From positions 1-25,950 of the IMG/VR virus record IMGVR_UViG_3300013125_000045: a DNA stretch of 25,950 bases; one strand, given 5' to 3'. Positions within the stretch are counted from its first letter, which is position 1. Each line of letters begins with the position of its first letter. This document shows, piece by piece, positions 1 to 10,253 of this stretch. The notes under the pieces are model-generated. The model searched no databases and was not told where the DNA came from. It saw nothing but the letters and a program-made list of their open reading frames with translations. The translations under genes and the position numbers were made by a program. The DNA comes from a virus.

Positions 1-58
1 AACGACCAGTTACTTGGCAAGTCGTTTTGTAAATGTAATGGTGTTGTTTGCGTGGCAT
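1..58 (-). CDS. GIY-YIG homing endonuclease, N-terminal fragment (cut by window edge)
   Basis: Reading from an ATG at 58 toward the left edge gives MPRKQHHYIYKTTCQVTGR, still open at base 1. The HYIYKTT...TGR pattern is the usual first strand of a GIY-YIG nuclease domain in phage homing endonucleases. The catalytic YIG, Arg, Glu and Asn lie outside the window. The ATG sits at the end of the 3' arm of an 18-bp hairpin whose loop carries a late promoter (see 56-107). The gene follows directly after the last tRNA of the array. The family call rests on 19 residues plus the shared regulatory layout, so it is likely but not proven. Confidence 0.6.
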   Translation of the reverse strand, partial: MPRKQHHYIYKTTCQVTGR

Positions 59-107
59 TTTTGTACTGATGTCTTTTGATTATTTATACGACATCAGTAC
101 AAAAATG
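56..107 (-). promoter_or_regulatory. 18-bp hairpin with late promoter TATAAATA in its loop, hiding a start codon
   Basis: Bases 56-73 and 90-107 are a perfect 18-bp inverted repeat around a 16-base loop. The loop holds TATAAATA on the minus strand (88 to 81), the T4 late-promoter box. The ATG of the endonuclease at 58 ends the 3' arm. A long transcript running through the tRNA array would fold and hide the start. A transcript started at the late promoter would lack the 5' arm. It could also act as a terminator for the array. Confidence 0.75.
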
Positions 108-115
108 ACCAGATG

Positions 116-188
116 TAGCGGGAGAGGGATTCGAACCCTCGACCTCAAGATTATGAGTCTTGCGAGCTGGCCTCTGCTCTACCCCACA
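116..188 (-). tRNA. tRNA with CAT anticodon (Met or Ile2)
   Basis: Full cloverleaf: D stem GAGC/GCTC, anticodon loop CTCATAA on a CAAGA/TCTTG stem, T arm GAGGG-TTCGAAT-CCCTC. The first acceptor pair is T:T, the rest pair with G:T wobbles. The anticodon stem lacks the three G:C pairs of initiator tRNA, so elongator Met, or Ile after C34 modification, is more likely. CCA is not encoded. Confidence 0.88.
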
Positions 189-191
189 ATG

Positions 192-264
192 TGGAAACGG
201 ACGGAATCGAACCGCCGACGCCAAGCTCTTCAGGCTTGCGCTCTACCGACTGAGCTACGCTTCC
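192..264 (-). tRNA. tRNA-Phe (GAA)
   Basis: Seven acceptor pairs (GGAAGCG/CGTTTCC, one wobble), anticodon loop CTGAAGA, T arm GGCGG-TTCGATT-CCGTC. CCA is not encoded. Confidence 0.95.
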
Positions 265-270
265 AATTAT

Positions 271-348
271 TGGTGCTCTCTGTAAGATTCGAACTTACGA
301 CTTTCACTTTGTAAGAGTGACACTCTGAACCAACTGAGTTAAGAGAGC
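271..348 (-). tRNA. tRNA-Val (TAC), CCA encoded
   Basis: Acceptor GCTCTCT/AGAGAGC pairs fully, anticodon loop CTTACAA, T arm GTAAG-TTCGAAT-CTTAC, followed by ACCA. Confidence 0.95.
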
Positions 349-353
349 GTGTG

Positions 354-428
354 TGATCGTAGCTGGATTCGAACCTGCGACCCCTACCCTGTCAAGGTAA
401 TGCTCTAAACCAACTGAGCTATACGATC
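354..428 (-). tRNA. tRNA-Val (GAC)
   Basis: Acceptor GATCGTA/TACGATC pairs fully, D arm GCTC/GAGC, anticodon loop TTGACAG. The anticodon arm closely resembles the enterobacterial Val(GAC) arm. T arm GCAGG-TTCGAAT-CCAGC. Confidence 0.92.
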
Positions 429-436
429 AATCTTAG

Positions 437-510
437 TAGTCCCGACGGGGCTCGAACCCGCAACCTTTGCCTTGAAAGGGCAACGACTTAACCTGTTCGT
501 CTACAGGACC
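437..510 (-). tRNA. tRNA-Glu (TTC), copy 1
   Basis: Acceptor GGTCCTG/CGGGACT pairs with two wobbles, anticodon loop CTTTCAA on TTGCC/GGCAA, T arm GCGGG-TTCGAGC-CCCGT. A second Glu(TTC) with a different body follows at 526-600. Confidence 0.9.
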
Positions 511-525
511 ATGAACTTTCGTTAG

Positions 526-600
526 TCCTCCGTACGGGATTCGAACCCGTGATCTCCAGGATGAAAACCTGACGTCCTTGACCGACTAGACGAACGGAGA
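526..600 (-). tRNA. tRNA-Glu (TTC), copy 2
   Basis: Acceptor TCTCCGT/ACGGAGG, D arm of the classical Glu type (TTCGTCTAG...AGGAC), anticodon loop TTTTCAT on TCAGG/CCTGG, T arm ACGGG-TTCGAAT-CCCGT. Confidence 0.92.
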
Positions 601-610
601 ATAGCAGAAT

Positions 611-1447
611 CTAAAGGTTGCTTATTATTACTTCGCTAGTGAATTTGCTTGTTTTAGCGCTTGCTACGATTGCTGACCAAGCAAAGTACCTCATAGATAC
701 GTCAATTACTGAGTATTTTTTGGACCACTCGATCAATTCGGAGTTTGTTAAACCGCTGTGAACAAAAGTGTTAGAAAGAACAAATTTGTACCCTAGACTG
801 TCCAATCCGTCAATATGCTCTAGCAACTGTACCTCATTTTCTATGTTCCACCCACAGTAAGTGTATTTTGATGCTAAGTACGGTGGATCAAAGTAAATAA
901 CATCCTTTTCTTTATCAATTTGACCGAGATCCAAGCTTGAGTAATCTCCGACGAAAAAGGAAAATTCTTTATCCTCGGCTAGCTTAACGTGAGCTGCTAG
1001 TCTATTGAAATCTAATTTTTTATACCCAAACGGGGTGTTAAATCCGTTTGGCCCAAACCTTAGCAGCGAGTTAAAGCTTGATTGAACTAGAACGTGTAGC
1101 ATTGGCGCATTATCCTGAGTAGTTCCGGTCACCTTCCATGTGTTATTGAAGTCGGAACGTAATCTCATAAATCCATCCTTAGTAGTTTCGCCAGATGGGT
1201 AATAATCGTTTGCAACGCTAACGCAATTTACTACGAAGCTTGGATCAAATATGCACTTGTGCAATTCGATAACGTCGTTACTTGAATCTATTCCTATACC
1301 TCCTCTTGCAGAATTGTACAAGCAGACTCCTGAACCTAAAAACGGTTCGTGAATTCGTTCAAACGGCGCTAACAAAGTTTTTAAGTTAGAAGACCAAATT
1401 CTAAATTTGTTTCCAGTATAAGAGAAAAGACCTTTGCTTGATGTCAT
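611..1447 (-). CDS. D12-class (Dam-like) adenine-N6 DNA methyltransferase
   Basis: 278 residues, the usual length for the D12/Dam family, which transfers a methyl group from S-adenosylmethionine to N6 of adenine in a short DNA site. Motifs appear in family order: FSYTGNKF near residue 8 (AdoMet pocket), HEPFLGSGV near 33, an IGIDSSN acidic strand near 51, the NSLLRFGPNGFNTPFG block near 126-141 and the catalytic DPPY near 187. All key residues look intact. It lies alone between tRNA-Glu and tRNA-Ile(TAT) with no restriction partner in view, so protection of phage DNA from host restriction is the simplest role. Target sequence cannot be read from the protein. A GATAAATT box about 20 bases upstream of the ATG may be a weak late promoter. 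Confidence 0.93.
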   Translation of the reverse strand: MTSSKGLFSYTGNKFRIWSSNLKTLLAPFERIHEPFLGSGVCLYNSARGGIGIDSSNDVIELHKCIFDPSFVVNCVSVANDYYPSGETTKDGFMRLRSDFNNTWKVTGTTQDNAPMLHVLVQSSFNSLLRFGPNGFNTPFGYKKLDFNRLAAHVKLAEDKEFSFFVGDYSSLDLGQIDKEKDVIYFDPPYLASKYTYCGWNIENEVQLLEHIDGLDSLGYKFVLSNTFVHSGLTNSELIEWSKKYSVIDVSMRYFAWSAIVASAKTSKFTSEVIISNL

Positions 1448-1483
1448 ATACTTTTCTACTAATTTATCGCTATCGGTTTACAG

Positions 1484-1556
1484 TACTCCAGGATGGAATT
1501 GAACCACCGGCCTTGAAGGTATAAGCTTCCTGCTCTCACCCCTGAGCTACTGGAGC
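1484..1556 (-). tRNA. tRNA-Ile (TAT)
   Basis: Acceptor GCTCCAG/CTGGAGT, D arm GCTC-AGGGGTGA-GAGC, anticodon loop CTTATAC, T arm GGTGG-TTCAATT-CCATC. It would read the rare AUA codon. The outermost anticodon-stem pair is G:A. Confidence 0.88.
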
Positions 1557-1641
1557 AAATAAAAGAAGAGAATTTTAGTTAGGGTTTAGTGTACAAAATC
1601 CAAATTTGCGAAGTAACCCTGTACTTTACTACTTCTTATTG
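1557..1641 (-). other. Spacer with copy M1 of the shared GTTACTTCG motif
   Basis: Between Ile(TAT) and the Ala-like locus. Minus strand 1632-1609 reads GTAGTAAAGTACAG then GGTTACTTCG, matching the motif at 2010-2034, 4184-4209, 4894-4918 and 5053-5080. No tRNA half was recognised on its 3' side, so this copy may be a relic. Confidence 0.5.
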
Positions 1642-1712
1642 TTGACACATTGGGAATCGAACCCAGTCATCTTCATTGCAAGTGAAGCGCCCTGCCTTCG
1701 GGATCTGGCCCA
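1642..1712 (-). tRNA. Atypical tRNA-like locus, anticodon TGC (Ala), 5' acceptor strand missing
   Basis: The 3' half is good: anticodon arm CTTCA-CTTGCAA-TGAAG, variable loop, T arm around TTCGATT, then TGTGTCA as 3' acceptor strand. The expected partner TGACACA is not found upstream; the sequence there (TGGGCCA) pairs at only about five of seven positions, and the D arm is irregular. An intact Ala(TGC) lies at 1850-1923. This may be a decayed gene, or one whose 5' end is supplied in some other way. The structured RNA at 1723-1845 lies directly on its 5' side. Confidence 0.5.
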
Positions 1713-1722
1713 TTTCTTCTCG

Positions 1723-1845
1723 TTCAGAACGAGCGAGCGAGGTTACCTGATATTGCATCGGGATATTTTCTACCTCGGGTGGTCTGCGTTCGGTTTGGAC
1801 TCTAAACAGCCTCGCTCAGCCATCGTCCGTTGAGCTCGTTCTGAA
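1723..1845 (-). ncRNA. Structured RNA element A between two Ala-type tRNAs
   Basis: 1723-1734 pairs perfectly with 1834-1845 (12 bp), and the adjoining 1735-1742 pairs with 1810-1817 (8 bp). This makes a long stem broken only by a 16-base bulge on one side. The 67-base interior holds a GTTT/AAAC hairpin with a seven-base loop. The length of the pairing makes chance unlikely. No hammerhead core or group I P7 pair was found. Function unknown; a processing signal or a small intron-like RNA are possible. Confidence 0.5.
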
Positions 1846-1849
1846 TTTG

Positions 1850-1923
1850 TGGACCGTAAGGGATTCGAACCCTTGACCTCCTGCTTGCAAGGCAGGCGCT
1901 CTAGCCATCTGAGCTAACAGCCC
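1850..1923 (-). tRNA. tRNA-Ala (TGC)
   Basis: Acceptor GGGCTGT/ACGGTCC with wobbles, D arm GCTC-AGATGGCTA-GAGC, anticodon loop CTTGCAA on CCTGC/GCAGG, T arm AAGGG-TTCGAAT-CCCTT. Confidence 0.95.
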
Positions 1924-1946
1924 GTAAAAGTAGAGAAAGTCGGGAG

Positions 1947-2009
1947 AGTCAACAGGCGGATTTGAACCGCATCGATTGTTTAAGAGACAATTGCCTTACC
2001 GTTAGGCGA
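1947..2009 (-). tRNA. Atypical tRNA-Lys (CTT), 5' acceptor strand replaced by the shared motif
   Basis: D arm GCC-TAACGGTAA-GGC, anticodon arm ATTGT-CTCTTAA-ACAAT, T loop TTCAAAT and 3' acceptor strand TGTTGAC are present. The partner GTCAACA is absent. In its place, directly before the TCGCC of the D arm, stands the motif ...AGAGTTACTTCG (2010-2034). tRNA-Pro ends only seven bases beyond the motif, so no 5' exon fits nearby in cis. Confidence 0.55.
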
Positions 2010-2034
2010 CGAAGTAACTCTATCCATTACTACT
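2010..2034 (-). other. Copy M2 of the shared GTTACTTCG motif
   Basis: On the minus strand it reads GTAGTAATG, then GATAGAGTTACTTCG, and joins the D arm of the Lys(CTT)-like tRNA. It is nearly identical to the motif overlapping the 3' end of the HNH gene at 4184-4209. Confidence 0.55.
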
Positions 2035-2040
2035 ACTTAG

Positions 2041-2114
2041 TCGAGTAGAGAGGATTCGAACCTCCGACCCCTTGATCCCAAATCAAGAACGCTAGCCAGC
2101 TGCGCCACTACTCG
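2041..2114 (-). tRNA. tRNA-Pro (TGG)
   Basis: Perfect acceptor CGAGTAG/CTACTCG, anticodon loop TTTGGGA on CTTGA/TCAAG, T arm GGAGG-TTCGAAT-CCTCT. The acceptor and T stem match the neighbouring Pro(CGG), which suggests a tandem duplication. Confidence 0.95.
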
Positions 2115-2126
2115 TTAGTTTAATAT

Positions 2127-2202
2127 TGGTCGAGTAGAGAGGGTTCGAACCTCCGACCCCAACGTCCCGAACGTTGTACGCTACCAGCTGCGCTACTACT
2201 CG
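2127..2202 (-). tRNA. tRNA-Pro (CGG), CCA encoded
   Basis: Acceptor CGAGTAG/CTACTCG followed by ACCA, anticodon loop TTCGGGA on CAACG/CGTTG, T arm GGAGG-TTCGAAC-CCTCT. Probably a diverged duplicate of Pro(TGG). Confidence 0.95.
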
Positions 2203-2209
2203 AATTTAT

Positions 2210-2286
2210 TGGTGGGCAAAGTAGGAGTCGAACCTACGGCCTTCTGAATATCAGTCAGATGCTCTAACCAACTGAGCTATATGCCC
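2210..2286 (-). tRNA. tRNA-Ile (GAT), CCA encoded
   Basis: Acceptor GGGCATA/TTTGCCC then ACCA, D arm GCTC/GAGC, anticodon loop CTGATAT on TCTGA/TCAGA, T arm GTAGG-TTCGACT-CCTAC. Confidence 0.95.
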
Positions 2287-2301
2287 GTTATGCAACTTTG
2301 T

Positions 2302-2412
2302 TCGATGTCAGCGGGAGTTGCCAACCCGTCCGCCTTACGGTGCGGCTCGCCGTTTGATCTTACGATCAGGGAAAGCGAGGAACTACGATCCGGTGGCCTA
2401 CCGGCTCATCGA
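2302..2412 (-). ncRNA. GC-rich structured RNA element B with two GTAA tetraloop hairpins
   Basis: 2302-2307 pairs with 2407-2412, extended by 2310-2312 with 2404-2406. Inside are the hairpins 2390-2394/2400-2404, TGATC-GTAA-GATCA (2355-2368, minus strand) and a second GTAA-capped hairpin at 2330-2345, plus CGGG/CCCG at 2312-2328. GTAA is a GNRA tetraloop, common in folded catalytic or regulatory RNA. The element fills the whole gap between Ile(GAT) and the interrupted Leu-like tRNA. Family unknown. Confidence 0.5.
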
Positions 2413-2620
2413 CACCCCTAGAGGATTTGAACCTCTGACTTCTCGACTACACCTTATTAACGATAGCATCACGTACGCTCTGTTATCTTTTGGGGTTCGT
2501 CTACCTTGATTCTCCCGGCTACTTCATCGGTTACCTCTGCGCAAAAGTAAACGAGTACCTTACCGAAGTCCTCAAGTTCCGGCCCTCAACTGGACGCTCT
2601 AACCGCTGAGCTAAGAGGTG
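2412..2620 (-). tRNA. Interrupted tRNA, Leu-like (GAG), with a 141-base insert before the T arm
   Basis: The 5' half (CACCTCT, D arm GCTC-AGCGGTTA-GAGC, anticodon arm TCCAG-TTGAGGG-CCGGA with one A:C mismatch) and the 3' half (AGAGG-TTCAAAT-CCTCT then AGGGGTG) pair at all seven acceptor positions with one wobble. Between them lie 141 bases (2437-2577). The insert folds locally: CTTGA 2576-2572 with TCAAG 2509-2505, ACTTC 2569-2565 with GAAGT 2525-2521, and GGT 2564-2562 with ACC 2531-2529. The D arm is of the short-variable type, odd for Leu. Intron in the variable loop is the likely reading; group I cores were not recognised. Confidence 0.55.
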
Positions 2621-2626
2621 ATTTTG

Positions 2627-2702
2627 TGGAGCCTTTGGAGGGATTCAAACCCCCGACCTTCTGAGTACAAATCAGTGGCTCTATCAGCTGAGCTACAAAG
2701 GC
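2627..2702 (-). tRNA. tRNA-Thr (TGT), CCA encoded
   Basis: Perfect acceptor GCCTTTG/CAAAGGC then TCCA, D arm GCTC-AGCTGATA-GAGC, anticodon loop TTTGTAC, T arm GGGGG-TTTGAAT-CCCTC. The T loop begins TTTG rather than TTCG. Confidence 0.94.
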
Positions 2703-2708
2703 ATTGAG

Positions 2709-2781
2709 AGCCTCATGCCGGAATCGAACCGACGACCTACTGAGTACGAAACAGTCGCTCTACCGTCTGAGCTAAAGAGGC
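2709..2781 (-). tRNA. tRNA-Thr (CGT)
   Basis: Acceptor GCCTCTT/ATGAGGC, D arm GCTC-AGACGGTA-GAGC, anticodon loop TTCGTAC on ACTGT/TCAGT, T arm GTCGG-TTCGATT-CCGGC. CCA is not encoded. Confidence 0.93.
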
Positions 2782-2784
2782 GTT

Positions 2785-2860
2785 TGGCACCAGTGGAAGG
2801 ACTCGAACCCTCAACCTTCGGTTTTGGAGACCGCTGCTCTACCAATTGAGCTACACTGAT
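2785..2860 (-). tRNA. tRNA-Trp (CCA), 3' CCA encoded
   Basis: Acceptor ATCAGTG/CACTGGT with G73 and encoded CCA, anticodon loop CTCCAAA on GCGGT/ACCGA, T arm GAGGG-TTCGAGT-CCTTC. Confidence 0.94.
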
Positions 2861-2905
2861 ATTTTTGATTTGAGAACAACGAAAAGAGCGACTTGATACT
2901 AAGCA

Positions 2906-3598
2906 TTATGGAAGCTTGGTACGGGATTCGAACCCGTGATAACCAACGATGAAACTCTGTTTCTCACTACAAATCAATAAGTTAATGGTGCGGGCGCCAC
3001 GGGGGTCGAACCCGCAATCCTCGAAGTGACAGTCCGATATGTTACCTACAACACTTCGCGCCCATTTTTTTTTATCAAGAATTTCTTTTGTCCAAACAGC
3101 TAATGTTCCGATTTTTCGTAATGCTTCCCATTTAAGTAGATCAGTAATAGTTGTTCTACCTTTAACTTCAACATACGTTATTGTATCGTCTAAGTTAGTT
3201 ACCGTGAAATCGATGATGTATGTATGCTTTTTAGAGTCTGACCCAATATATTGAATTCGGTTTTTTGCGTATTCCCAATTTTTAATCATACCCGACAACT
3301 TAGCTTCATCTAGTATTCGGCAGGCTTTAGCTTCGTACGAACCTTGAACCTTTAACGTTCTATCTGAGCATGCTACAACTATCCATTTAGTAGTTCCGCC
3401 TGCGACAAAATTCTTACCAGTTTGATAAGAACGTTTGTTAACTTCAGACCAATTTACTTTACTGTGATTAGTCCATCCTCCTCTATAAGAAGTTGCACAA
3501 CTTCGTGAACAACAAGTTTGGCGACGTTTATTCCAGTTGACAATAAATTCTGTTTGACAATTTTGGCAGATCAATTTTACTTTGTCGTGTCCGGTCAT
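2906..3598 (-). CDS. PD-(D/E)XK-type homing endonuclease with zinc-binding N-terminus
   Basis: 230 residues. The N-terminus has a CQNC...CCSRSC zinc-ribbon pattern (about residues 11-34). A nuclease-like core follows: SYEAKACRIL near 88, IIDF near 128 and YVEVKG near 141, matching the E...xD...ExK spacing of PD-(D/E)XK nucleases. It resembles the second endonuclease at 5128-5697 in layout (zinc site, then core ending in YVEIKG). The recognisable protein ends near DKKKW (about base 3063). After that the frame runs through tRNA-Asp (2991-3063) and the orphan tRNA half to a stop at 2906, so the last 50 or so residues are tRNA sequence read as protein. A late promoter and start-codon hairpin lie at 3594-3619. 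DNA target unknown. Confidence 0.75.
   Translation of the reverse strand: MTGHDKVKLICQNCQTEFIVNWNKRRQTCCSRSCATSYRGGWTNHSKVNWSEVNKRSYQTGKNFVAGGTTKWIVVACSDRTLKVQGSYEAKACRILDEAKLSGMIKNWEYAKNRIQYIGSDSKKHTYIIDFTVTNLDDTITYVEVKGRTTITDLLKWEALRKIGTLAVWTKEILDKKKWARSVVGNISDCHFEDCGFDPRGARTINLLICSEKQSFIVGYHGFESRTKLP
2913..2965 (-). tRNA. Orphan tRNA 3' half (Glu-like TTC loop)
   Basis: T arm ACGGG-TTCGAAT-CCCGT and 3' acceptor strand ACCAAGC are clear, and a TTTCAT loop resembling that of the Glu tRNA at 526-600 lies before them. No upstream 5' half with GCTTGGT exists before the next tRNA. Downstream, GCTTAGT (2904-2898) could pair with ACCAAGC at six of seven positions around a nine-base loop, similar to the permuted Ser locus, but no D arm follows. 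It overlaps the 3' end of the endonuclease ORF 2906-3598. Confidence 0.4.
2991..3063 (-). tRNA. tRNA-Asp (GTC), copy inside the endonuclease ORF
   Basis: Acceptor GGGCGCG/GGCGCCC pairs at six of seven positions (G:G at the base). D arm GTGT/ACAT, anticodon arm TCGGA-CTGTCAC-TTCGA, T arm GCGGG-TTCGACC-CCCGT, G73. Its 5' end follows a run of A in the endonuclease frame, as if the endonuclease inserted directly beside it. Confidence 0.85.
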
Positions 3599-3619
3599 GT
3601 TTTATTTTATTTATATGAC
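3594..3619 (-). promoter_or_regulatory. Late promoter inside a start-codon hairpin (endonuclease 2906-3598)
   Basis: TATAAATA occupies 3615-3608 on the minus strand. GTCAT (3619-3615) pairs with ATGAC (3598-3594), which contains the ATG start. The stem is 5 bp with a 16-base AT-rich loop. Same layout as at 56-107, 4655-4686 and 17802-17834. Confidence 0.65.
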
Positions 3620-3644
3620 TTTCAGCGTGAACTAAAATGGTCGA

Positions 3645-3720
3645 TGGCGGTCCCAACGAGAGTTGAACTCGCTCCGTACTGCGTGACAGGCAGACATCTT
3701 AACCGTTTGACCTTGAGACC
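3645..3720 (-). tRNA. tRNA-Asp (GTC), CCA encoded
   Basis: Acceptor GGTCTCA/TGGGACC with G73 and CCA, D arm GTC-AAACGGTTAA-GAT, anticodon arm TCTGC-CTGTCAC-GCAGT, T arm GCGAG-TTCAACT-CTCGT. Confidence 0.94.
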
Positions 3721-3727
3721 ATTACTG

Positions 3728-3813
3728 TGACCCCGGTTGGATTCGAACCAACGACTTTCCGCTTAAAAGGCGGAAGCTCTAAGCTTGCGCAAACCGGACT
3801 GAGCTACGAGGCC
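3728..3813 (-). tRNA. tRNA-Lys (TTT) with an enlarged D loop
   Basis: Acceptor GGCCTCG/CGGGGTC, anticodon arm TCCGC-CTTTTAA-GCGGA, T arm GTTGG-TTCGAAT-CCAAC. The D stem GCTC/GAGC encloses a 21-base loop instead of 8-10 bases. The extra part contains the self-complementary TTGCGCAA. All other parts are normal, so the tRNA may still work. Confidence 0.88.
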
Positions 3814-3830
3814 AGCTAATAAATATCGCT

Positions 3831-4028
3831 ATGAACTTGTATCACTGCGATCATTGCGACTCAATAACTGACGAGGCAGGAAATTTCGTCAGATTAGATA
3901 CCAGGCCGTTGGCGTTCAACGACCTCCCACTCCGTTGTTGTAAGTCTTGCCGCGATTACGAAATGTGGGAATACGAAGAGTATTTTTCTGGAAATCCGAG
4001 GACCGAGAGGGATTCGAACCCTCAATAA
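3831..4028 (+). CDS. Small cysteine-rich protein, possible zinc ribbon, antisense to the tRNA array
   Basis: 65 residues on the opposite strand to the array. CDHC at residues 6-9 and CCKSC at 36-40 form a plausible zinc site, and the middle (FVRLDTRPLAFNDLPLR) reads like real protein. AATAAATA at 3818-3825, a late-promoter-like box, ends only five bases before the ATG. The last 10 or so residues are antisense to the Gly-like tRNA at 3999-4068 and look accidental. The cysteine pattern argues for a real gene; short length and position argue against. Function unknown. Confidence 0.45.
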   Translation: MNLYHCDHCDSITDEAGNFVRLDTRPLAFNDLPLRCCKSCRDYEMWEYEEYFSGNPRTERDSNPQ

Positions 4029-4068
4029 CCAGTGGGACGGGGCGCGCACCAACCGTCGCATTCGGCCC
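3999..4068 (-). tRNA. tRNA-like gene, possibly Gly (CCC), with a poor anticodon arm
   Basis: Acceptor GGGCCGA/TCGGTCC pairs at all seven positions (one wobble) and the T arm GAGGG-TTCGAAT-CCCTC is perfect. D stem GCG/CGC is possible. The anticodon arm is weak: a loop GTCCCAC would give CCC, but the flanking stem pairs at only two or three positions. Possibly a decaying gene. Confidence 0.55.
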
Positions 4069-4107
4069 ATAATTACAAACAAGAACATTGGATAGAGGTA
4101 TTTGTTT

Positions 4108-4184
4108 GATGTCAAATTTCAAGTTTGATGACTTAACCACTTGTCTACACGGATTGCTCCATGATGGGATTCGAACCCACGATC
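4108..4184 (-). tRNA. Apparent circularly permuted tRNA-Ser (TGA)
   Basis: Read along the minus strand, the 3' half comes first: variable-arm GATC (4184-4181), T arm GTGGG-TTCGAAT-CCCAT (4180-4164), acceptor strand CATGGA (4163-4158). After the tetraloop GCAA the 5' half follows: TCCGTG (4153-4148, pairing six of six), TA, D arm GAC-AAGTGGTTAA-GTC of Ser type, anticodon arm TCAAA-CTTGAAA-TTTGA, then ATC pairing with the opening GAT. All cloverleaf parts are present once, with the gene ends in the variable arm. Ordinary reading fails: no fitting 3' half lies downstream. CCA is not encoded. Whether it is processed into a tRNA is unknown. Confidence 0.6.
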
Positions 4185-4209
4185 GAAGTAACTCTATGAC
4201 CTTACTATG
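4184..4209 (-). other. Copy M3 of the shared GTTACTTCG motif, overlapping the HNH gene end
   Basis: The minus strand reads CATAGTAAGG, then TCATAGAGTTACTTCG. The first part codes for the last residues and the stop of the HNH protein; the second runs straight into the permuted Ser tRNA. This ties the motif family to a mobile endonuclease gene. Confidence 0.6.
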
Positions 4210-4661
4210 CTTGATTTCTTATTGACAATGTTTTTTGCTCCGAACGTATGCGTTTGAGAATGACAGTTTGGACACAAAAGTCTCAGATTTCTAAGTCTGT
4301 GATTTCTGTTATTTCCGTCAATGTGATCGACTTGTAAAGATAAAGGTCGACCATTCCATTCTGCTGGAGTTCCGCATTCTTCGCAACGATCCTCTTTGTA
4401 ACCTTCCGCAATCAAACGTCTTTTTAGTTTAGACGTAGGATATTCTGGATGCTTTCCTTCGAGAATGTCAAGCAATTTGAATGCTACTCCGCCGGTTCTT
4501 TTCATTTTGCGTAACTTGACTTCAATTTGAATTCCTAACAGATTGCAATATTTAGTTAGAGTCACTCTACTGATTCCAGTTACTTCTGAAAGTTCCAAAA
4601 CAGAATTAACGTTCTTGGCATTTTCATTGATTTTGTCTACGATTTCTTGGTTTAGCCGCAT
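4194..4661 (-). CDS. HNH homing endonuclease
   Basis: 155 residues from the ATG at 4661. An earlier TTG start at 4697 is rejected because the late promoter lies between the two. The N-terminal half carries a helix-turn-helix-like stretch (VLELSEVTGISRVTLTKYCNLLGI, about residues 21-44). The C-terminal half is a classic HNH nuclease with two zinc-binding CxxC pairs (CEECG and CPNCH) around LQVDHIDGNNRNHRLRNLRLL. The catalytic DH, N and final H are present. It lies between tRNA-Tyr and the permuted Ser tRNA. Its stop overlaps the repeated motif that marks the other interrupted tRNAs, so it may be the mobile partner of that family. Confidence 0.9.
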   Translation of the reverse strand: MRLNQEIVDKINENAKNVNSVLELSEVTGISRVTLTKYCNLLGIQIEVKLRKMKRTGGVAFKLLDILEGKHPEYPTSKLKRRLIAEGYKEDRCEECGTPAEWNGRPLSLQVDHIDGNNRNHRLRNLRLLCPNCHSQTHTFGAKNIVNKKSSIVRS

Positions 4662-4686
4662 TGCTTTATTTTTATTTATATGCGGC
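4655..4686 (-). promoter_or_regulatory. Late promoter inside a start-codon hairpin (HNH gene)
   Basis: TATAAATA occupies 4680-4673 (minus). GCCGCAT (4686-4680) pairs perfectly with ATGCGGC (4661-4655), whose first three bases are the start codon. The loop is 18 bases. Read-through RNA would hide the ATG; RNA begun at the late promoter would not contain the 5' arm. Confidence 0.75.
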
Positions 4687-4714
4687 CTGTTTACCAAAAC
4701 TTCTGTAAACTACG

Positions 4715-4796
4715 TAGGATGTGATGGAGTCGAACCACCCGAGCTTTCACAACAGATTTACAGTCTGCCCCGCTACCATCTACGGAATAACATCCC
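4715..4796 (-). tRNA. tRNA-Tyr (GTA)
   Basis: Acceptor GGGATGT/ACATCCT, anticodon arm GCAGA-CTGTAAA-TCTGT as in typical bacterial Tyr, a longer variable region, T arm GGTGG-TTCGACT-CCATC. Confidence 0.92.
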
Positions 4797-4840
4797 ATTT
4801 CCCTCTATTTTTGATTTCCTGGAGGGTGCGGAATCATTCG

Positions 4841-4962
4841 TGGGGAAGGCTGGATTTGAACCAACAAGATCAACTTATGAGATTGATTGTTTCCGAAGTA
4901 ACACTTATCATTGCTATCATCGCTGAAGAAAACCGACAGTGCGCATTTTTGTTTTCTTCCCC
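4841..4962 (-). tRNA. Interrupted tRNA with CAT anticodon (Met/Ile2-like), insert between acceptor and anticodon arm
   Basis: Acceptor GGGGAAG/CTTCCCC is perfect. Anticodon arm TCAAT-CTCATAA-GTTGA and T arm GTTGG-TTCAAAT-CCAGC are good. About 75 bases stand where the D arm should be. They hold a 9-bp hairpin (4959-4951 with 4933-4925) that uses part of the 5' acceptor strand. Its loop CTGTC (4939-4935) can pair with GATAG (4918-4914), making an H-type pseudoknot, and the shared motif (4914-4894) follows. TGTT-ACTTCGGA-AACA at the end could be the D arm, placing the insert after base 7. Confidence 0.6.
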
Positions 4963-4998
4963 ATAGGTACCTGTTTTTACTGTACAGGAAAACAGTTT

Positions 4999-5119
4999 TG
5001 GCGGGGAAGGCTGGATTCGAACCAACATTACCAATTTTCAAGTTTGCTTTTTACCGAAGTAACTCTTATCTTTGCTATCGTTTCCGAAGAAATTCGACAG
5101 AGTATTGAATTTCTTCCCC
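4999..5119 (-). tRNA. Interrupted tRNA with TGA anticodon (Ser-like), CCA encoded
   Basis: Sister of 4841-4962. Acceptor GGGGAAG/CTTCCCC is perfect and followed by GCCA; G73 fits Ser. The T arm GTTGG-TTCGAAT-CCAGC is good; the CTTGAAA loop has a weak stem. The D region holds a perfect 10-bp hairpin (5116-5107 with 5095-5086). Its loop CTGTCG (5100-5095) can pair with CGATAG (5080-5075), followed by the motif ending GTTACTTCG (5053). Hairpin arms differ in sequence between the two copies yet stay paired. Confidence 0.6.
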
Positions 5120-5127
5120 ATGTTTCT

Positions 5128-5697
5128 TTATGAATTCCAAGATTTTCCTCTGTACTCTCGATTTACTTTACGATAATCAGAAATGAGTCCTAACGAGAAA
5201 AGATCCTGGCCGTTCAATATCTTCAATGAAAGTGGAAATTCATTCCACTTTGCAAAATCCTTTTCGGTAGGGTACCCCTTTATTTCAACGTATTGATTGT
5301 CATCAACGAGATAGAAATCTGGAGTGTAATATCGAGTTTTTGAATCGAATTCGTATCTGAACTTTTCAGTTGGTCGTCTCCACCGAATTCCTTGTGAATC
5401 TAACCATTTGGCGTATTCAACTTCCCATGTTCCGTGAAATCGTTGACCACCGTATTCGATTGTTCGTTTTTTCGAAAAAGATAGGTGCCAGTTATCAGTC
5501 CTGACGTTTTCCTTTACTGTATCGGAAATCTTCCGTCTGACTTCAGATCGACTTGCTGGATTTTTTTGACCCATCATTCGATTCTGACTCTTCTGTCTGG
5601 AAGTTTCAACGTTTGGATTATTTTTACACCAAACGATGTGACCTCCTAACTTCAAACCATTATCAAATGCTTTTCCGCAATATTTACATTCATGCAT
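5128..5697 (-). CDS. PD-(D/E)XK-type homing endonuclease with zinc finger
   Basis: 189 residues. The N-terminus has a C2HC-like zinc finger, CKYCGKAF...LKLGGHIVWC (residues 4-24). A basic linker follows (QNRMMGQKNPASRSEVRRKISDTV), like DNA-binding modules of mobile nucleases. The core reads HGTWEVEYAKWLDS, YYTPDFYLVDD, YVEIKGYPTEKD, which gives the glutamate, the PD and the ExK of the PD-(D/E)XK fold. It resembles the endonuclease at 2906-3598 and is not obviously truncated. It sits between tRNA-Asn and the interrupted tRNA at 4999-5119. A late promoter lies just upstream. Confidence 0.8.
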   Translation of the reverse strand: MHECKYCGKAFDNGLKLGGHIVWCKNNPNVETSRQKSQNRMMGQKNPASRSEVRRKISDTVKENVRTDNWHLSFSKKRTIEYGGQRFHGTWEVEYAKWLDSQGIRWRRPTEKFRYEFDSKTRYYTPDFYLVDDNQYVEIKGYPTEKDFAKWNEFPLSLKILNGQDLFSLGLISDYRKVNREYRGKSWNS

Positions 5698-5704
5698 GAG
5701 CGCT

Positions 5705-5730
5705 TGTCCTTTATTTTATTTATACAGACA
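5705..5730 (-). promoter_or_regulatory. Late promoter upstream of endonuclease 5128-5697, weak hairpin over AAAGGA
   Basis: TATAAATA lies at 5724-5717 (minus). TGTC (5730-5727) can pair with GACA (5708-5705), partly covering the AAAGGA ribosome site. The stem is only 4 bp, so the hairpin is less certain than in the other endonuclease genes. Confidence 0.5.
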
Positions 5731-5744
5731 CCTGCTCGTTTCTG

Positions 5745-5817
5745 CGGGAGTAGAGGGATTCGAACCCACAACCTCAAAGTTAACAGCTTTTCGCTCTACC
5801 GTTGGAGCTATACTCCC
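5745..5817 (-). tRNA. tRNA-Asn (GTT)
   Basis: Acceptor GGGAGTA/TACTCCC with G73, D arm GCTC-CAACGGTA-GAGC, anticodon arm AAAAG-CTGTTAA-CTTTG, T arm GTGGG-TTCGAAT-CCCTC with one mismatch. Confidence 0.92.
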
Positions 5818-5822
5818 AAAAT

Positions 5823-5879
5823 ATGAATCATCATCCATCATCCCAACGTCCTGCTGAGGTGAAGATAGAAATGATTCAT
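5823..5879. repeat. 9-bp inverted repeat between tRNA-Asn and tRNA-Gly
   Basis: ATGAATCAT at 5823-5831 and ATGATTCAT at 5871-5879 are exact reverse complements 39 bases apart. It may be a processing structure in the tRNA precursor; no gene was seen here. Confidence 0.45.
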
Positions 5880-5882
5880 GTG

Positions 5883-5955
5883 AGCGGAAAACGGGGCTTG
5901 AACCCGCAACCCTTAGCTTGGAAGGCTAATGCTCTACCAGTTGAGCTATTTCCGC
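5883..5955 (-). tRNA. tRNA-Gly (TCC)
   Basis: Perfect acceptor GCGGAAA/TTTCCGC, D arm GCTC-AACTGGTA-GAGC, anticodon arm TTAGC-CTTCCAA-GCTAA, T arm GCGGG-TTCAAGC-CCCGT. Confidence 0.95.
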
Positions 5956-5959
5956 GTTT

Positions 5960-6015
5960 GCACGGGTCACCATCACGGCCCCGTGCTTGTGCTAGGCGGG
6001 CGGTAGACCGCCTAG
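5960..6015 (-). ncRNA. Tandem GC-rich hairpins (element D) between two tRNAs
   Basis: GCACGGG/CCCGTGC (5960-5966 with 5980-5986) is followed at once by CTAGGCGG/CCGCCTAG (5992-5999 with 6008-6015). Both stems are perfect, and the stretch is far richer in GC than its surroundings, as in element B. No T run follows, so terminators are unlikely. Function unknown. Confidence 0.45.
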
Positions 6016-6057
6016 CTTTGTGCCAATATTTTCCAAGATGTCAAAGAACCTTTACTG

Positions 6058-6173
6058 TGCGCTCGGAAGGATTCGAACCTCCGTAGATTCCAGCTTAATT
6101 TCTGAACGTTAAGGTTGTAAGCCCGTTCAGTGTACCAATTTCGGCTGGTGCTTATCCGCTCAGTCACGAGCGC
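6058..6173 (-). tRNA. Atypical long tRNA, Ser-type D arm, with an extra internal stem
   Basis: Perfect acceptor GCGCTCG/CGAGCGC, Ser-like D arm TGACTGAGCGGATAAGC, T arm GGAGG-TTCGAAT-CCTTC. The middle is too long and folds two ways. ACCAG/TTGGT can enclose CCGAAA, a six-base version of a Ser(CGA) loop, leaving a long variable region with the 7-bp stem CTGAACG/CGTTCAG. Alternatively CCAGC/GCTGG forms an anticodon stem holding that hairpin as an insert. First gene of the array in the transcribed direction. Confidence 0.55.
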
Positions 6174-6197
6174 GTTTATGTTAAAGAACTGTTAAAA

Positions 6198-6236
6198 CAA
6201 AAAACCCGAGCTTTCTTTTTGAAGGCCCGGGTTTTC
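6198..6236 (-). terminator. Strong rho-independent-type terminator upstream of the tRNA array
   Basis: A hairpin pairs 6201-6215 with 6221-6235 (core AACCCG.GC...GC.CGGGTT), with a run of T on its 3' side on the minus strand. It separates the tRNA array from the genes on its right. Confidence 0.8.
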
Positions 6237-6259
6237 CAAGTTTCTTGTGATAATTACCT

Positions 6260-6388
6260 TCACTTCAACCTATGCAAACCTGAGCCCATTCTTACGTCAT
6301 CGCATGATGGATTCCATGTTCCAATAAAGCCCTCGAGGGATATTGGTTGGGAACTGCGATACGCCTTATGTAACTGTAGGGTTTTCAT
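6260..6388 (-). CDS. Possible small protein of 42 residues
   Basis: ATG at 6388 opens MKTLQLHKAYRSSQPISLEG..., ending in GSGLHRLK and a stop at 6260. GATAAATA at 6422-6415 lies 27 bases before the ATG, and the terminator at 6198-6236 lies just after the stop, so promoter, ORF and terminator form a plausible unit. No family recognised. It could instead be a short untranslated RNA. Confidence 0.4.
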   Translation of the reverse strand: MKTLQLHKAYRSSQPISLEGFIGTWNPSCDDVRMGSGLHRLK

Positions 6389-6414
6389 TTGTTGTTTGTG
6401 TTAGTGTTCGGTTT

Positions 6415-6422
6415 TATTTATC
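6415..6422 (-). promoter_or_regulatory. Late-promoter-like box GATAAATA
   Basis: Minus-strand GATAAATA followed by AAAC, differing from the T4 late box only in the first base. It faces the 42-residue ORF at 6260-6388. Confidence 0.5.
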
Positions 6423-6595
6423 ACGACCTTCTTAAAAGTTTTCGTCGATGTGAAACTATTCTACAACTTTTTCCAACGTTTGGCCAATTTTTTTGGAACT
6501 TTTTTACAAACTTTTTTCCAAGTGATTGATTCTCATTGAAATAATTGGTGAAGCTAAATTACAACTTTTTCCCGAAAGGAAAAAATCCAGCCAAA
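6423..6595. other. AT-rich spacer with short repeats
   Basis: No convincing gene. Several near-repeats of GGAAAAAAGTT on the minus strand lie at about 6465-6525. A TTTTTCC-CGAAA-GGAAAAA hairpin at 6566-6586 may be a second terminator. Confidence 0.35.
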
Positions 6596-6624
6596 CAAAA
6601 ATGGACAGGCTAAAACCTGTCCAT
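6596..6624 (-). terminator. Rho-independent-type terminator
   Basis: ATGGACAGG/CCTGTCCAT (6601-6609 with 6616-6624), six-base loop, then TTTTTG on the minus strand. It ends the membrane-protein operon that stops at 6658. Confidence 0.85.
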
Positions 6625-6657
6625 TCTCCCGCGGGCGAGCGCGTTCCTATTTTATTT

Positions 6658-6993
6658 CTATTGAACCAAAGTTCGGTTAAGAATTGGGTACTTTTCTCGA
6701 TCACTTTCAACTTCCGACTCGACGTTTTTTCCGTCAACCTTGAACTCACGAGTAGGAGTTACGCTTATCTCGAGCTTCATAAGGTTCGCTCTGAAGGCTT
6801 TCCGATTGAAGATGAATAACGCTGTTTCGTAGAGCGTGTGCATCCCAGCGTAAGCGTAGTGAACTAACGTAAGAATCAGAGCTACGAAAAAACCGGCAAT
6901 CTTGGTCGATCCTTTGAATTCCTTCGTCATCATGGTCTTCATTCGCTTCCTGTGTATGCATTCTTTTTTCCAGAGTACTTCAACGTAAGTCAT
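6658..6993 (-). CDS. Small protein with one membrane segment
   Basis: 111 residues from the ATG at 6993, chosen because AAGGAGGA lies seven bases before it. This is the clearest Shine-Dalgarno site seen in the window; a TTG six bases further up is a less likely start. Residues around KIAGFFVALILTLVHYAYAG form one hydrophobic helix, preceded by a basic stretch (KKECIHRKRMKTMMTK), so the N-terminus is probably cytoplasmic. The C-terminus is charged and soluble. It follows the gene at 7006-7722 by 12 bases and precedes a terminator. No family recognised. Confidence 0.65.
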   Translation of the reverse strand: MTYVEVLWKKECIHRKRMKTMMTKEFKGSTKIAGFFVALILTLVHYAYAGMHTLYETALFIFNRKAFRANLMKLEISVTPTREFKVDGKNVESEVESDREKYPILNRTLVQ

Positions 6994-7005
6994 GATCAAT
7001 CCTCC

Positions 7006-7722
7006 TTACTTGCTTGTTAATTGTTTGAGATAATTTTCCCGGCCTTTGAAAGCGCAGGTTCTTTTTACATTTTCAGGAAGAGCATCGTACTCTTTTTGCG
7101 GAAGGTATAAACACATGTAGTCTCCCCAGGCTGGAATGGATTCGCTTACTATCCACTTGAAATTCTCAGCGTACTTTATTCCAATAGACTCGAACCTTGG
7201 CTTGCTAACCGTATCTCCTTCAGGAATTGGAACGACCTTAAGATCTGACGAGACTGTCCAATAGTCTACGTCCAATTTGTTGTCCTTTACCTGAACGTAC
7301 CCAATAGCTGTATCGTAAGCTGAGTTCCAATAGAGAATGTAGTGAATGAGAACTTCCTTTTTGTAGGATTTCTTGATGAAGACGCCTGTGTCAGTCTTGA
7401 TGCTGTCAGTTCGTATGCCTCTAGCTACGAGTGCTTCTCCTTCCAAGTCAGTTATCCTCCATGAGGAATCTTTAGCCATGACGAAACCTGTGGAATCTTG
7501 AGCTTTTTCGCTTATCCACATGGGCTTGATGTAGTACCTCTGCCTAACCTCATCCGTGAGTTTGATGGAAGGTCTGAAGACAAAGGAAGTAGTTAGTAAG
7601 CTCACCAGCATGAGTGCAGCTGAGATGCCCAGAACGTTGATTCGCTTTTCCCAGAAGTTCTTTCCGTACAAGCAGCCTCCAACGATAAGGCCGATAAAAA
7701 GTGCAATTACTATTGTCCACAT
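7006..7722 (-). CDS. Membrane-anchored protein of unknown function
   Basis: 238 residues from the ATG at 7722. An upstream extension to 7794 would run through a terminator hairpin and is rejected. Two hydrophobic helices open the protein (WTIVIALFIGLIVGGCLYG and VLGISAALMLVSLLTTSFVF), followed by a soluble domain of about 170 residues with beta-rich character (WRITDLEGEALVARGI..., VLIHYILYWNSAYDTAIGYVQVKDNKLDVDY). The layout fits an inner-membrane anchor with a periplasmic domain. No catalytic motif is visible. It lies between two other membrane-protein genes on the same strand. Confidence 0.65.
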   Translation of the reverse strand: MWTIVIALFIGLIVGGCLYGKNFWEKRINVLGISAALMLVSLLTTSFVFRPSIKLTDEVRQRYYIKPMWISEKAQDSTGFVMAKDSSWRITDLEGEALVARGIRTDSIKTDTGVFIKKSYKKEVLIHYILYWNSAYDTAIGYVQVKDNKLDVDYWTVSSDLKVVPIPEGDTVSKPRFESIGIKYAENFKWIVSESIPAWGDYMCLYLPQKEYDALPENVKRTCAFKGRENYLKQLTSK

Positions 7723-7763
7723 AATTTTTAAGTTTGTTACGGTTAATATACCCTTTTCACGCA

Positions 7764-7798
7764 AAAAGTGCCCGATTCTTTTGAAACCGAGCACTTTT
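7764..7798 (-). terminator. Bidirectional-type terminator hairpin, with GATAAATA on its edge
   Basis: AAAAGTGC at 7764-7771 pairs with GCACTTTT at 7791-7798, continued inside by CGGTT/AATCG, with T runs on both sides. GATAAATA (7805-7798, minus) sits between the upstream stop codon and the hairpin. A late transcript begun there would carry the hairpin in its leader for the gene at 7006-7722. Confidence 0.75.
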
Positions 7799-7805
7799 AT
7801 TTATC

Positions 7806-9221
7806 TTAGTCTTCAGTATCTGTCCATTCGATACCTGGGCAGTAGTCCTTCTTGCTTGCTCCGAAGTACTCTCCGAAGATTCCGAGACTACCGACGAAGA
7901 TGCCGCCGATTGCTCTGCACAGGCCCCAAAGGAATATCCCAAGGTTGACCAGGATAACTTTCCAGAGGAAAGTGTAGAAGATGAACTTCAACGGAACGAA
8001 CAGTATGTAGTACAGCAGGTAGAATATTCCGAGAATGAGGTACTTAACCGGGTAGCCGATAACGTACAGAAAACCTTGAACGTACCAAACTTTCTTTCCC
8101 ATCTGGTATTTGCCTATGACGTGCTGGATCCAGTTGAATATAACGTACTCGATCGCTACTAGGATTGCTAGAGCTGCGAGTGCTAACACTGCTCCCAGTA
8201 TGTACATTCCAAAGCTAGTGAAGAGGTATGCTACGCCGTCCGCTGCTGCAATGATCACGTAAGTAACGCCCATTACCAGAAAGACAGTTATGGCCAGTAC
8301 GATCATGGAAACCAGCAAACCGATGAACTGCTTGGTGCGTTTGATGATTGGACTCTTCTTGTAGTCAAAGGTCATAGCGCTCGAGATGCTGGTGCCGATC
8401 TTGTTCATGGTATCGTTGAACGGTTTCCAGAACAAACGGTTGCGTTCCTGACGAGCTCTGCGCTTGCTCTCACGTTCCCAGAACAGACGATCCTGACGTT
8501 CGCGTTCGATTCGCTTTTGCTCCGATTTTTCAGCGTTTTCGATCCTTCTTTTTTCTTCCCACTCTTCCTTGATTCGCTTTAGCTCTTCTACTTTCCTAAC
8601 GTAAACTTCAGGATTTTTAGTTTCATCGATGCCATACCTTATTTTGATGAAGGTTGGCAGGAACCAGTTGCCGGTGTGCTTGAAGTGGGCTTTTGCTAGG
8701 ATAGGAACGTTGTAGTCTCCTTTCCATGGATTTCCGTAGTAGTCAATGTCGTACGCTTTTTCTTCCGGCATGATTCGTAACGTTGCGTTAGCGAACAGCT
8801 CGAGAACTTTCCAGAAAAGGTACGGGAAGTCCAGGAGGAATGTTCCAAAACCGCGCAGGATGAAGAGGAACGGAACTACCAGGATGGAGAAGACCAGCAG
8901 CCAGAAATACGGACAGCCGTTCTGCATCGTCTGTGGGGTAGGCACATTGCTGCGAAGAACGTACTTCATGAGTCGGTAGTGCCATGACTTCATGCTCACT
9001 TTCATGAGCTTGGGACTCTCGCAGAAGTTCGTAAACTCCACGTGTTCCTCGCGTAGGTAGAATTTTCCGGCTTCCTTAGCAGTTCCTTTGTACACTTCGA
9101 TCGGTTTGATGAAGTAGTCACCGCTGTTGTCCCGGAACAGAAAACCCTTCATGTGGTCGGTGCTGTTATTCAGCTCAACCAGCTTGTGGGTCAGAGATTT
9201 CAACTTTGAATTGTTGTTCAT
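7806..9221 (-). CDS. Large multi-pass membrane protein
   Basis: 471 residues from the ATG at 9221; the TTG at 9230 is a weaker start. A soluble N-terminus of about 100 residues is followed by hydrophobic helices (PYFWLLVFSILVVPFLFILRGFGTF), then a soluble loop. Next comes a charged coiled-coil-like stretch rich in Glu, Arg and Lys (EELKRIKEEWEEKRRIENAEKSEQKRIERERQDR...). At least four more membrane helices end the protein (FIGLLVSMIVLAITVFLVMGVTYV, FGMYILGAVLALAALAILVAIEYVIF, YLILGIFYLLYYILFVPLKFIFY, LGIFLWGLCRAIGGIFVGSLGI). No known family recognised. The base composition is richer in GC than the tRNA region. Role could be in envelope remodelling or exclusion, but this is only inference. Confidence 0.75.
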   Translation of the reverse strand: MNNNSKLKSLTHKLVELNNSTDHMKGFLFRDNSGDYFIKPIEVYKGTAKEAGKFYLREEHVEFTNFCESPKLMKVSMKSWHYRLMKYVLRSNVPTPQTMQNGCPYFWLLVFSILVVPFLFILRGFGTFLLDFPYLFWKVLELFANATLRIMPEEKAYDIDYYGNPWKGDYNVPILAKAHFKHTGNWFLPTFIKIRYGIDETKNPEVYVRKVEELKRIKEEWEEKRRIENAEKSEQKRIERERQDRLFWERESKRRARQERNRLFWKPFNDTMNKIGTSISSAMTFDYKKSPIIKRTKQFIGLLVSMIVLAITVFLVMGVTYVIIAAADGVAYLFTSFGMYILGAVLALAALAILVAIEYVIFNWIQHVIGKYQMGKKVWYVQGFLYVIGYPVKYLILGIFYLLYYILFVPLKFIFYTFLWKVILVNLGIFLWGLCRAIGGIFVGSLGIFGEYFGASKKDYCPGIEWTDTED

Positions 9222-9995: not shown

Positions 9996-10253
9996 TTACT
10001 TACGGTTAAGGACCTCGGCCGAAACTGTTAAACCGTCCGTGCCCTTGATTATTTTTATTGAGACTTCTGAAAATCCTCGTATGAACAAAACATCGTCCAC
10101 TATCTCCTGAATATCATCTCCGCCTATGTTAGGATGAACTATTCCTGGCTGGTACGGATCGACTAATAATTTCTCAGCAAATTCCTCAGCTGTTCTGATG
10201 AATTCTTGCTTCTCGTGAAGAGCTTTGAGCTCCGATCCTTTCTTATCGCTCAT
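9996..10253 (-). CDS. Small conserved-type hypothetical protein
   Basis: 85 residues; start codon overlaps the stop of the upstream gene (TAATG), so the two are translationally coupled. The N-terminal half is helical and charged (LKALHEKQEFIRTAEEFAEKLLVD), the C-terminal half has a beta pattern (EVSIKIIKGTDGLTVSAEVLN). Last gene of the operon that begins at 16720. Function unknown. Confidence 0.65.
   Translation of the reverse strand: MSDKKGSELKALHEKQEFIRTAEEFAEKLLVDPYQPGIVHPNIGGDDIQEIVDDVLFIRGFSEVSIKIIKGTDGLTVSAEVLNRK

What the first reader, a model, noticed from the sequence alone, without database searches (positions are those of the whole stretch)
4108..4184. Circularly permuted tRNA-Ser gene in a phage
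The T arm and 3' acceptor strand come before the 5' acceptor strand, D arm and anticodon arm. The two acceptor strands are joined by a GCAA tetraloop, and the ends meet in the variable arm (ATC with GAT). Permuted tRNA genes are established in some red and green algae and archaea; I know of none in phages. The rival reading, an orphan 3' half beside an orphan 5' half, would need the 6-bp match and the ATC/GAT match to be chance. A second rival is a tRNA mimic with another job.
Basis: partly seen in the sequence, partly recalled or inferred. Interest (0 to 1): 0.88.

Follow-up and report, generated by a model that had tools for sequence, protein, structure and literature searches.

The report
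Phage Y RNA carrying permuted tRNA
The back-to-front tRNA in this giant-phage fragment is real, but it is almost certainly the head of a Y RNA, a small RNA that docks on the phage's own Ro60 protein, and not a tRNA gene; unusually, it keeps a complete anticodon arm that the bacterial Y RNAs examined here lack.

Summary
The permuted order at 4184-4108 (minus strand) is real: T arm, closed acceptor hairpin, D arm, anticodon arm. It is more than chance: no such module occurs in 15 Mb of matched random sequence, and 20 orthologues in related phages keep it with compensatory changes in all seven acceptor pairs and all five anticodon-stem pairs. It runs about 4213-4080, and a covarying Y-RNA-type stem joins its two ends. 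An overlapping contig of the same phage (100% identical) encodes a Ro60/Rsr protein. At least ten units marked by UUACUUCG lie in the same tRNA array, and orthologues sit beside Ro60. So this is a YrlA-type Y RNA, whose tRNA-like domain is already known to be a circular permutation of tRNA (PMC11472068). It is not a permuted tRNA-Ser gene: the anticodon varies among orthologues, the phage has an ordinary tRNA-Ser(UGA), and the ATC/GAT ends match is not conserved. New features: the complete anticodon arm (0 of 49 cellular Ro60-linked modules have one), the size of the array, and two inside-out tRNA/Y hybrids nearby (5119-5003, 4962-4842). New variant of a known kind.

The parts
4080..4213 (-). 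Whole unit A: Y-RNA-like transcript with a permuted, complete tRNA module
   Evidence: CM R1 hit 4220-4083, 117 bits (window is in the training set); Y-stem permutation test p = 7e-5; Rfam YrlA weak full-length hit 4203-4105, 23.4 bits, E 0.073, below gathering
4192..4213 (-). 5' strand of the Y stem (CAAG.CAT.AGTAA.GG.TC.ATAGAG)
   Evidence: overlaps the last codons of the HNH ORF
4184..4191 (-). UUACUUCG motif shared by 10 units of this phage
   Evidence: 11 sense copies in 35 kb (10 in units, 1 in a CDS), 0.5 expected
4164..4180 (-). T arm
   Evidence: 100% of cells paired
4148..4163 (-). Closed acceptor hairpin CATGGA-GCAA-TCCGTG
   Evidence: 7 of 7 pairs with changes on both sides in 20 orthologues
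4130..4145 (-). D arm
4112..4128 (-). Anticodon arm, loop CUUGAAA (UGA)
   Evidence: 5 of 5 pairs with changes on both sides; triplet not conserved
4080..4097 (-). 3' strand of the Y stem (CTCTAT.CC.A.ATG.TT.CTTG)
5003..5119 (-). Unit D: tRNA-like with open acceptor GGGGAAG/CTTCCCC followed by G-CCA; Y stem closed inside it (CG-GAAA-CG loop)
4842..4962 (-). Unit C: same inside-out layout, anticodon-like loop CUCAUAA
1928..2038 (-). Unit U4: Y stem in place of the acceptor stem of a D / anticodon / T arm module
1563..1637 (-). Unit U5: Y stem with no tRNA module
4194..4697 (-). HNH endonuclease ORF next to the unit; a mobile neighbour, not part of it
   Evidence: Pfam HNH 2.9e-8; absent beside the orthologue in L147

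Best explanation
Unit A is a phage-encoded Y RNA of the YrlA type. Its two ends pair into a Y stem with flanking internal loops (UAGYAA on the 5' side, about AACAUUCU on the 3' side) that most likely docks on the phage's Ro60 ring protein. The head is a complete tRNA cloverleaf that is circularly permuted so that the Y stem leaves from the variable region, while the acceptor stem is sealed into a hairpin and cannot be charged. Shown here: anatomy, covariation of every helix, the sibling array, and a Ro60 gene in the same phage with units beside Ro60 in relatives. Inferred: transcription, Ro60 binding, and function. The most likely function is that the Ro60/Y-RNA particle presents the tRNA-like head as an effector-binding module. 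It could tether a host or phage RNA enzyme, as YrlA/Rsr does with PNPase, or act as a tRNA decoy; the covarying anticodon arm with a CU-NNN-AA loop fits a decoy or inhibitor of anticodon-directed enzymes during infection.
For: Ro60: ORF at L131 11120-12745 (contig 100% identical to window 1-8777) with TROVE above cut-off and vWA_Ro60; a profile of 30 relatives finds Ro60/Rsr chains in the PDB (1yvp, 2nvo, 9kop); model pLDDT 88, top Foldseek hits all Ro60, including the Thermus phage phiLo Ro60; MIDAS D369, S371, S373 invariant. Array: ten UUACUUCG units; matched 5'/3' flanks pair better than permuted ones, p = 7e-5. Orthologues: 20 units, 98.5% of cells paired, covariation 0.564 vs 0.163 shuffled, 0/500. 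The CM built from them finds untrained units in LR756511 (E 1e-11), L124, L132, L183, L176 and L213; in untrained Ro60 loci 20 of 23 hits lie within 700 nt 5' of Ro60, 3.5% of the DNA (hits not independent). Rfam YrlA hits sibling U8 (31 bits, E 0.007), L091 (36 bits, E 2.7e-5) and Gordonia phage Trax beside its Ro-like gene (44 bits, E 6.7e-7). All 49 closed-acceptor modules in cellular Ro60 loci have the same T / closed acceptor / D order.
Against: No expression or binding data. Unit A scores below Rfam's YrlA gathering cut-off (23.4 vs 69 bits), as do all phage units scanned. Bacterial YrlA, as described and as modelled in Rfam, has D, T and acceptor arms only; the anticodon arm is extra. 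TROVE was not detected in LR756511, L124 or L091, which carry similar units, so Ro60 dependence there is unproven. In the window phage, unit A lies about 11 kb from Ro60, not beside it.
Confidence: 0.88

Rival explanations
1. A true permuted tRNA gene: the transcript's ends are ligated in the variable region, RNase P and a 3' nuclease open the GCAA loop, CCA is added, and a working tRNA-Ser results.
For: All four arms intact and covarying; loop mostly CU-NNN-AA with U33 in 17 of 20 as parsed; in a few orthologues the acceptor loop begins with GCCA, as if a discriminator base plus CCA were a relic of a tRNA 3' end.
Against: Anticodon not conserved; an ordinary tRNA-Ser(UGA) is present; the ends are joined by a covarying Y stem, not by ligatable ends; most acceptor loops lack NCCA; in the window the position 1-72 pair would be A-G; L147 lacks U33.
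Confidence: 0.05
2. Two orphan halves of different tRNAs left by HNH insertion or array decay, adjacent by accident.
For: Tandem phage tRNA arrays often set a 3' half before a 5' half; an HNH gene is adjacent; Rfam tRNA can join the D and anticodon arms to a downstream T arm with a long insert (28.9 bits).
Against: No complementary half nearby; the same unit is kept in 20 relatives with compensatory changes; no HNH next to it in L147.
Confidence: 0.02
3. A tRNA mimic that acts without Ro60, for example a free decoy for a host anticodon nuclease or a sponge for tRNA enzymes.
For: Similar units occur in phages where TROVE was not detected (LR756511, L124, L091); the anticodon arm is maintained but its triplet varies.
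Against: The Y stem and UUACUUC motif are shared with Ro60-adjacent units in many phages, including Streptomyces isolates; this phage has Ro60.
Confidence: 0.05

Closest known systems
YrlA bacterial Y RNA (Rfam RF02553; Salmonella structure 6CU1, Wang et al. 2018 as cited in PMC11472068 and PMC8394870)
   Same: Basal stem joining the 5' and 3' ends; T arm, then closed acceptor hairpin, then D arm; circular permutation of tRNA; encoded with a Ro60/Rsr protein.
   Different: Has a complete covarying anticodon arm; Y stem enters at the variable region; weak Rfam score; one of many units in a giant-phage tRNA array, some of them inside-out.
Y RNAs next to Ro-like genes in isolated phages (Gordonia Trax, Streptomyces BRock and JustBecause, Caulobacter CcrPW)
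   Same: Closed-acceptor permuted module within about 1 kb 5' of Ro60; UUACUUC-like motif in the Streptomyces phages.
   Different: No anticodon arm found in these.
Permuted tRNA genes of red and green algae and archaea (own knowledge)
   Same: 3' half before 5' half, acceptor strands joined by an intervening loop.
   Different: Those are spliced into circles and cut into working tRNAs with fixed anticodons; here the ends form a stem, the anticodon drifts, and an ordinary tRNA-Ser(UGA) exists.
tmRNA and viral tRNA-like structures (PMC11472068)
   Same: tRNA mimicry with part of the cloverleaf replaced.
   Different: tmRNA keeps an open, chargeable acceptor; plant-virus forms are non-circular permutations. 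Units C and D are nearer to tmRNA in this one respect.

Membership tests
YrlA-type bacterial Y RNA | 5' and 3' ends pair in a basal stem | tested here: met
   Permutation test p = 7e-5; inner Y stem 100% paired in 20 orthologues
YrlA-type bacterial Y RNA | tRNA-like domain ordered T arm, closed acceptor hairpin, D arm | tested here: met
   same order in the RF02553 consensus and in 49 cellular modules
YrlA-type bacterial Y RNA | No anticodon arm (D, T and acceptor arms only) | tested here: not met
   Anticodon arm present and covarying; 0 of 49 cellular modules have one. Hence a new variant; this is a typical trait rather than a functional requirement
YrlA-type bacterial Y RNA | Score above the Rfam RF02553 gathering threshold | tested here: not met
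   23.4 bits vs 69; Gordonia Trax, beside its Ro60, also falls below it at 44 bits, so the model is narrow
YrlA-type bacterial Y RNA | Encoded with a Ro60/Rsr protein | tested here: met
   Ro60 in the same phage; orthologues beside Ro60
YrlA-type bacterial Y RNA | Physically bound by Ro60; head binds an effector | not testable with these tools
   needs biochemistry
Functional permuted tRNA gene | Fixed anticodon matching a decoding need | tested here: not met
Functional permuted tRNA gene | Ends ligated, acceptor opened, CCA end formed | not testable with these tools
   needs RNA sequencing; most acceptor loops lack NCCA
Ro60/Rsr protein | TROVE ring plus vWA domain with MIDAS | tested here: met

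The most novel reading that the evidence does not exclude
The phage makes Y RNA/tRNA chimaeras in both topologies, and some are real tRNAs. Units C and D (open 7-bp acceptor, G-CCA after D) could be charged while tethered through their internal Y stem to Ro60. A-type RNAs whose acceptor loops begin with NCCA could be opened by RNase P into two-piece tRNAs held together by the Y stem. Ro60 would then handle charged or translating tRNAs rather than decoys.
Probability: 0.08. Interest if true: 0.88.

Novelty: new variant of a known kind. Interest (0 to 1): 0.62.

Why it matters
It explains a striking 'permuted tRNA in a phage' as a Y RNA and gives a large comparative set (20 orthologues, a working covariance model, about 80 phage Ro60 loci) for a class whose head function is poorly understood. 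The covarying anticodon arm with a drifting triplet is a strong clue that anticodon-arm-directed enzymes are among the partners, which makes the tRNA-decoy idea proposed for YrlA (PMC7790460) directly testable. The inside-out hybrids suggest that phages shuffle tRNA and Y modules by circular permutation in both directions.

Tried and rejected
MFE folding z-scores were weak (-1.4 and -0.85) and were not used as evidence. The first IMG/VR pattern mostly returned ordinary tandem tRNAs whose neighbouring acceptors pair by chance; a tighter pattern with a GNRA loop gave 5 contigs, but the GNRA loop later proved not to be conserved. BLAST of the module against phages gave one useful hit, LR756511. 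LR745206 has Ro60 but no tRNA array beside it. The L091 572-aa ORF with a vWA-like motif next to a Y array is not recognised as TROVE or any PDB chain by sequence and is left open. The first structure job, a single sequence, was useless (pLDDT 38) and was replaced by an alignment job.

Full report
What was claimed. A circularly permuted tRNA-Ser gene at 4184-4108 (minus strand) with a GCAA-closed acceptor.

Observation. The four arms are in the stated order and at the stated place. Under strict rules no such module appears in 15 Mb of random sequence of the window's composition. Neither half has a partner half nearby. The ends match ATC/GAT and the GCAA loop are not conserved in relatives.

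First lead. Rfam in permissive mode gave a weak full-length YrlA hit at 4203-4105 (23.4 bits, E 0.073, gathering score 69). YrlA is the bacterial Y RNA. The literature says its tRNA-like domain is a circular permutation of tRNA (PMC11472068), with D, T and acceptor arms, a basal stem that binds the Ro60 orthologue Rsr, and a head that binds PNPase (PMC8394870).

The phage has Ro60. A contig of the same phage (G001; 100% identical over window 1-8777) runs about 9.3 kb past the window's start. It holds a 541-aa ORF on the same strand with a TROVE domain above cut-off and a Ro60-type vWA domain. A profile of 30 relatives finds Ro60/Rsr structures in the PDB. The predicted fold (pLDDT 88) matches Ro60 best, including a phage Ro60 from Thermus phage phiLo.

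The unit is larger and one of many. UUACUUCG sits just 5' of the T arm. In 35 kb of this phage it occurs 11 times in sense (10 in units, 1 in a CDS) against 0.5 expected. Around eight of these units, including A, the 5' and 3' flanks form a stem with internal loops. Matched flanks pair far better than permuted ones (p = 7e-5). Units carry different heads: permuted tRNA with an anticodon arm (A); permuted tRNA without it (U6, U8, U9); D/anticodon/T order (U4, U10); or no tRNA (U5, U7). In C and D the Y stem is closed inside a tRNA with an open acceptor: the same parts permuted the other way. LR756511 (595-kb huge phage) seems to show both layouts too (by eye).

Orthologues. A Ro60 search of IMG/VR gave 79 loci. 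Twenty units, A and 19 direct orthologues, were aligned. Given the structure, 98.5% of cells pair, 20 of 24 pairs change on both sides, the covariation score is 0.564 against 0.163 in shuffles (0 of 500), and slid controls pair at 47% or less. The closed acceptor has 7 of 7 and the anticodon stem 5 of 5 pairs with changes on both sides. The anticodon varies: CAU most often, then UAU, AAA, AAU, GCA, and UGA in the window and L147 (L168 and L169 were read one base out of register by the parser). Acceptor loops vary in length and sequence; a few start with GCCA.

Independence. The covariance model built from these units finds others in phages not used to build it: LR756511, L124 (411 kb), L132/L091, L183, L176, L213 and others. 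In untrained Ro60 loci 20 of 23 hits lie within 700 nt 5' of Ro60 (hits within one locus are not independent, so the p value is only indicative). Isolated Streptomyces, Gordonia and Caulobacter phages have YrlA-like units near Ro60, without an anticodon arm.

Control for novelty. In 75 cellular Ro60 loci, 49 closed-acceptor modules were found; none has an anticodon arm under the same rules. The A-type is therefore a variant with a complete cloverleaf. Absence from these loci is not proof that none has been described; the key paper (Chen et al. 2014) and the Sim et al. 2020 review are not held in the library.

Mechanism. Shown: structure, conservation, array, Ro60 gene. Inferred: the Y stem docks on Ro60 and the tRNA-like head is the effector module. 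A sealed acceptor argues against charging. A maintained anticodon arm with a drifting triplet fits recognition of the arm's shape, for instance by modification enzymes or anticodon nucleases; YrlA has been proposed as a competitive inhibitor of such a nuclease (PMC7790460). An ordinary tRNA-Ser(UGA) in the array removes the need for a permuted one.

Verdict. Real and interesting, but a member of a known kind (YrlA-type Y RNA) in a new variant and setting, not the first permuted tRNA gene of a phage.

Noticed in passing
window 5119-5003 and 4962-4842 (-): Two ~120-nt tRNA-like units with open acceptor GGGGAAG/CTTCCCC and an internal closed Y stem in place of the D arm; D ends in G-CCA and has a UGA-like loop, C has a CAU-like loop. 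Inside-out version of unit A.
   Followed up: partly
window 6173-6058 (-) and L131 12785-12895 (+): tRNAs with about 45-50 nt inserted in the anticodon loop, containing a hairpin (CTGAACG/CGTTCAG in the first); Rfam tRNA 35.6 and 38.6 bits. Intron or Y-like insert unclear.
   Followed up: no
L131 5414-5592 (+), beyond window start: Full-length match to Rfam archaeal RNase P RNA (RF00373, 33.1 bits, E 8e-6, below gathering) between two tRNA genes: a possible phage RNase P RNA-like gene.
   Followed up: no
L091 / L132 (132.8-kb virus IMGVR_UViG_3300035698_017305), L091 about 3840-2930 (-): Array of at least six units with shared flanks (CCCTACAGT..CATACAT / CGACTAGC) in which the tRNA domain is opened at the D loop, acceptor, variable region or near the anticodon in different units; followed by a 572-aa ORF with a vWA-like motif not recognised as TROVE.
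   Followed up: partly
L129 9600-10400 (LR756511.1): 595-kb huge phage with a similar array; one unit has GCAA-closed acceptor CATCACA/TGTGGTG, a UUU anticodon loop and a 10-bp outer stem; another looks inside-out. No TROVE found in the record.
   Followed up: partly
window 10253-10969 (-): ORF matching Tad6, a type I Thoeris anti-defence inhibitor (Pfam PF25188, E 4.2e-15).
   Followed up: no
window 4070-4003 (-): tRNA-like stretch with a T arm and acceptor but no clear anticodon arm, directly downstream of unit A; not called by ARAGORN.
   Followed up: no
L228 7773-8028 (Brevundimonas phage Kabachok): Above-threshold Rfam hit to permuted tmRNA (RF04321, 57.1 bits) in a Ro60-encoding phage.
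   Followed up: no
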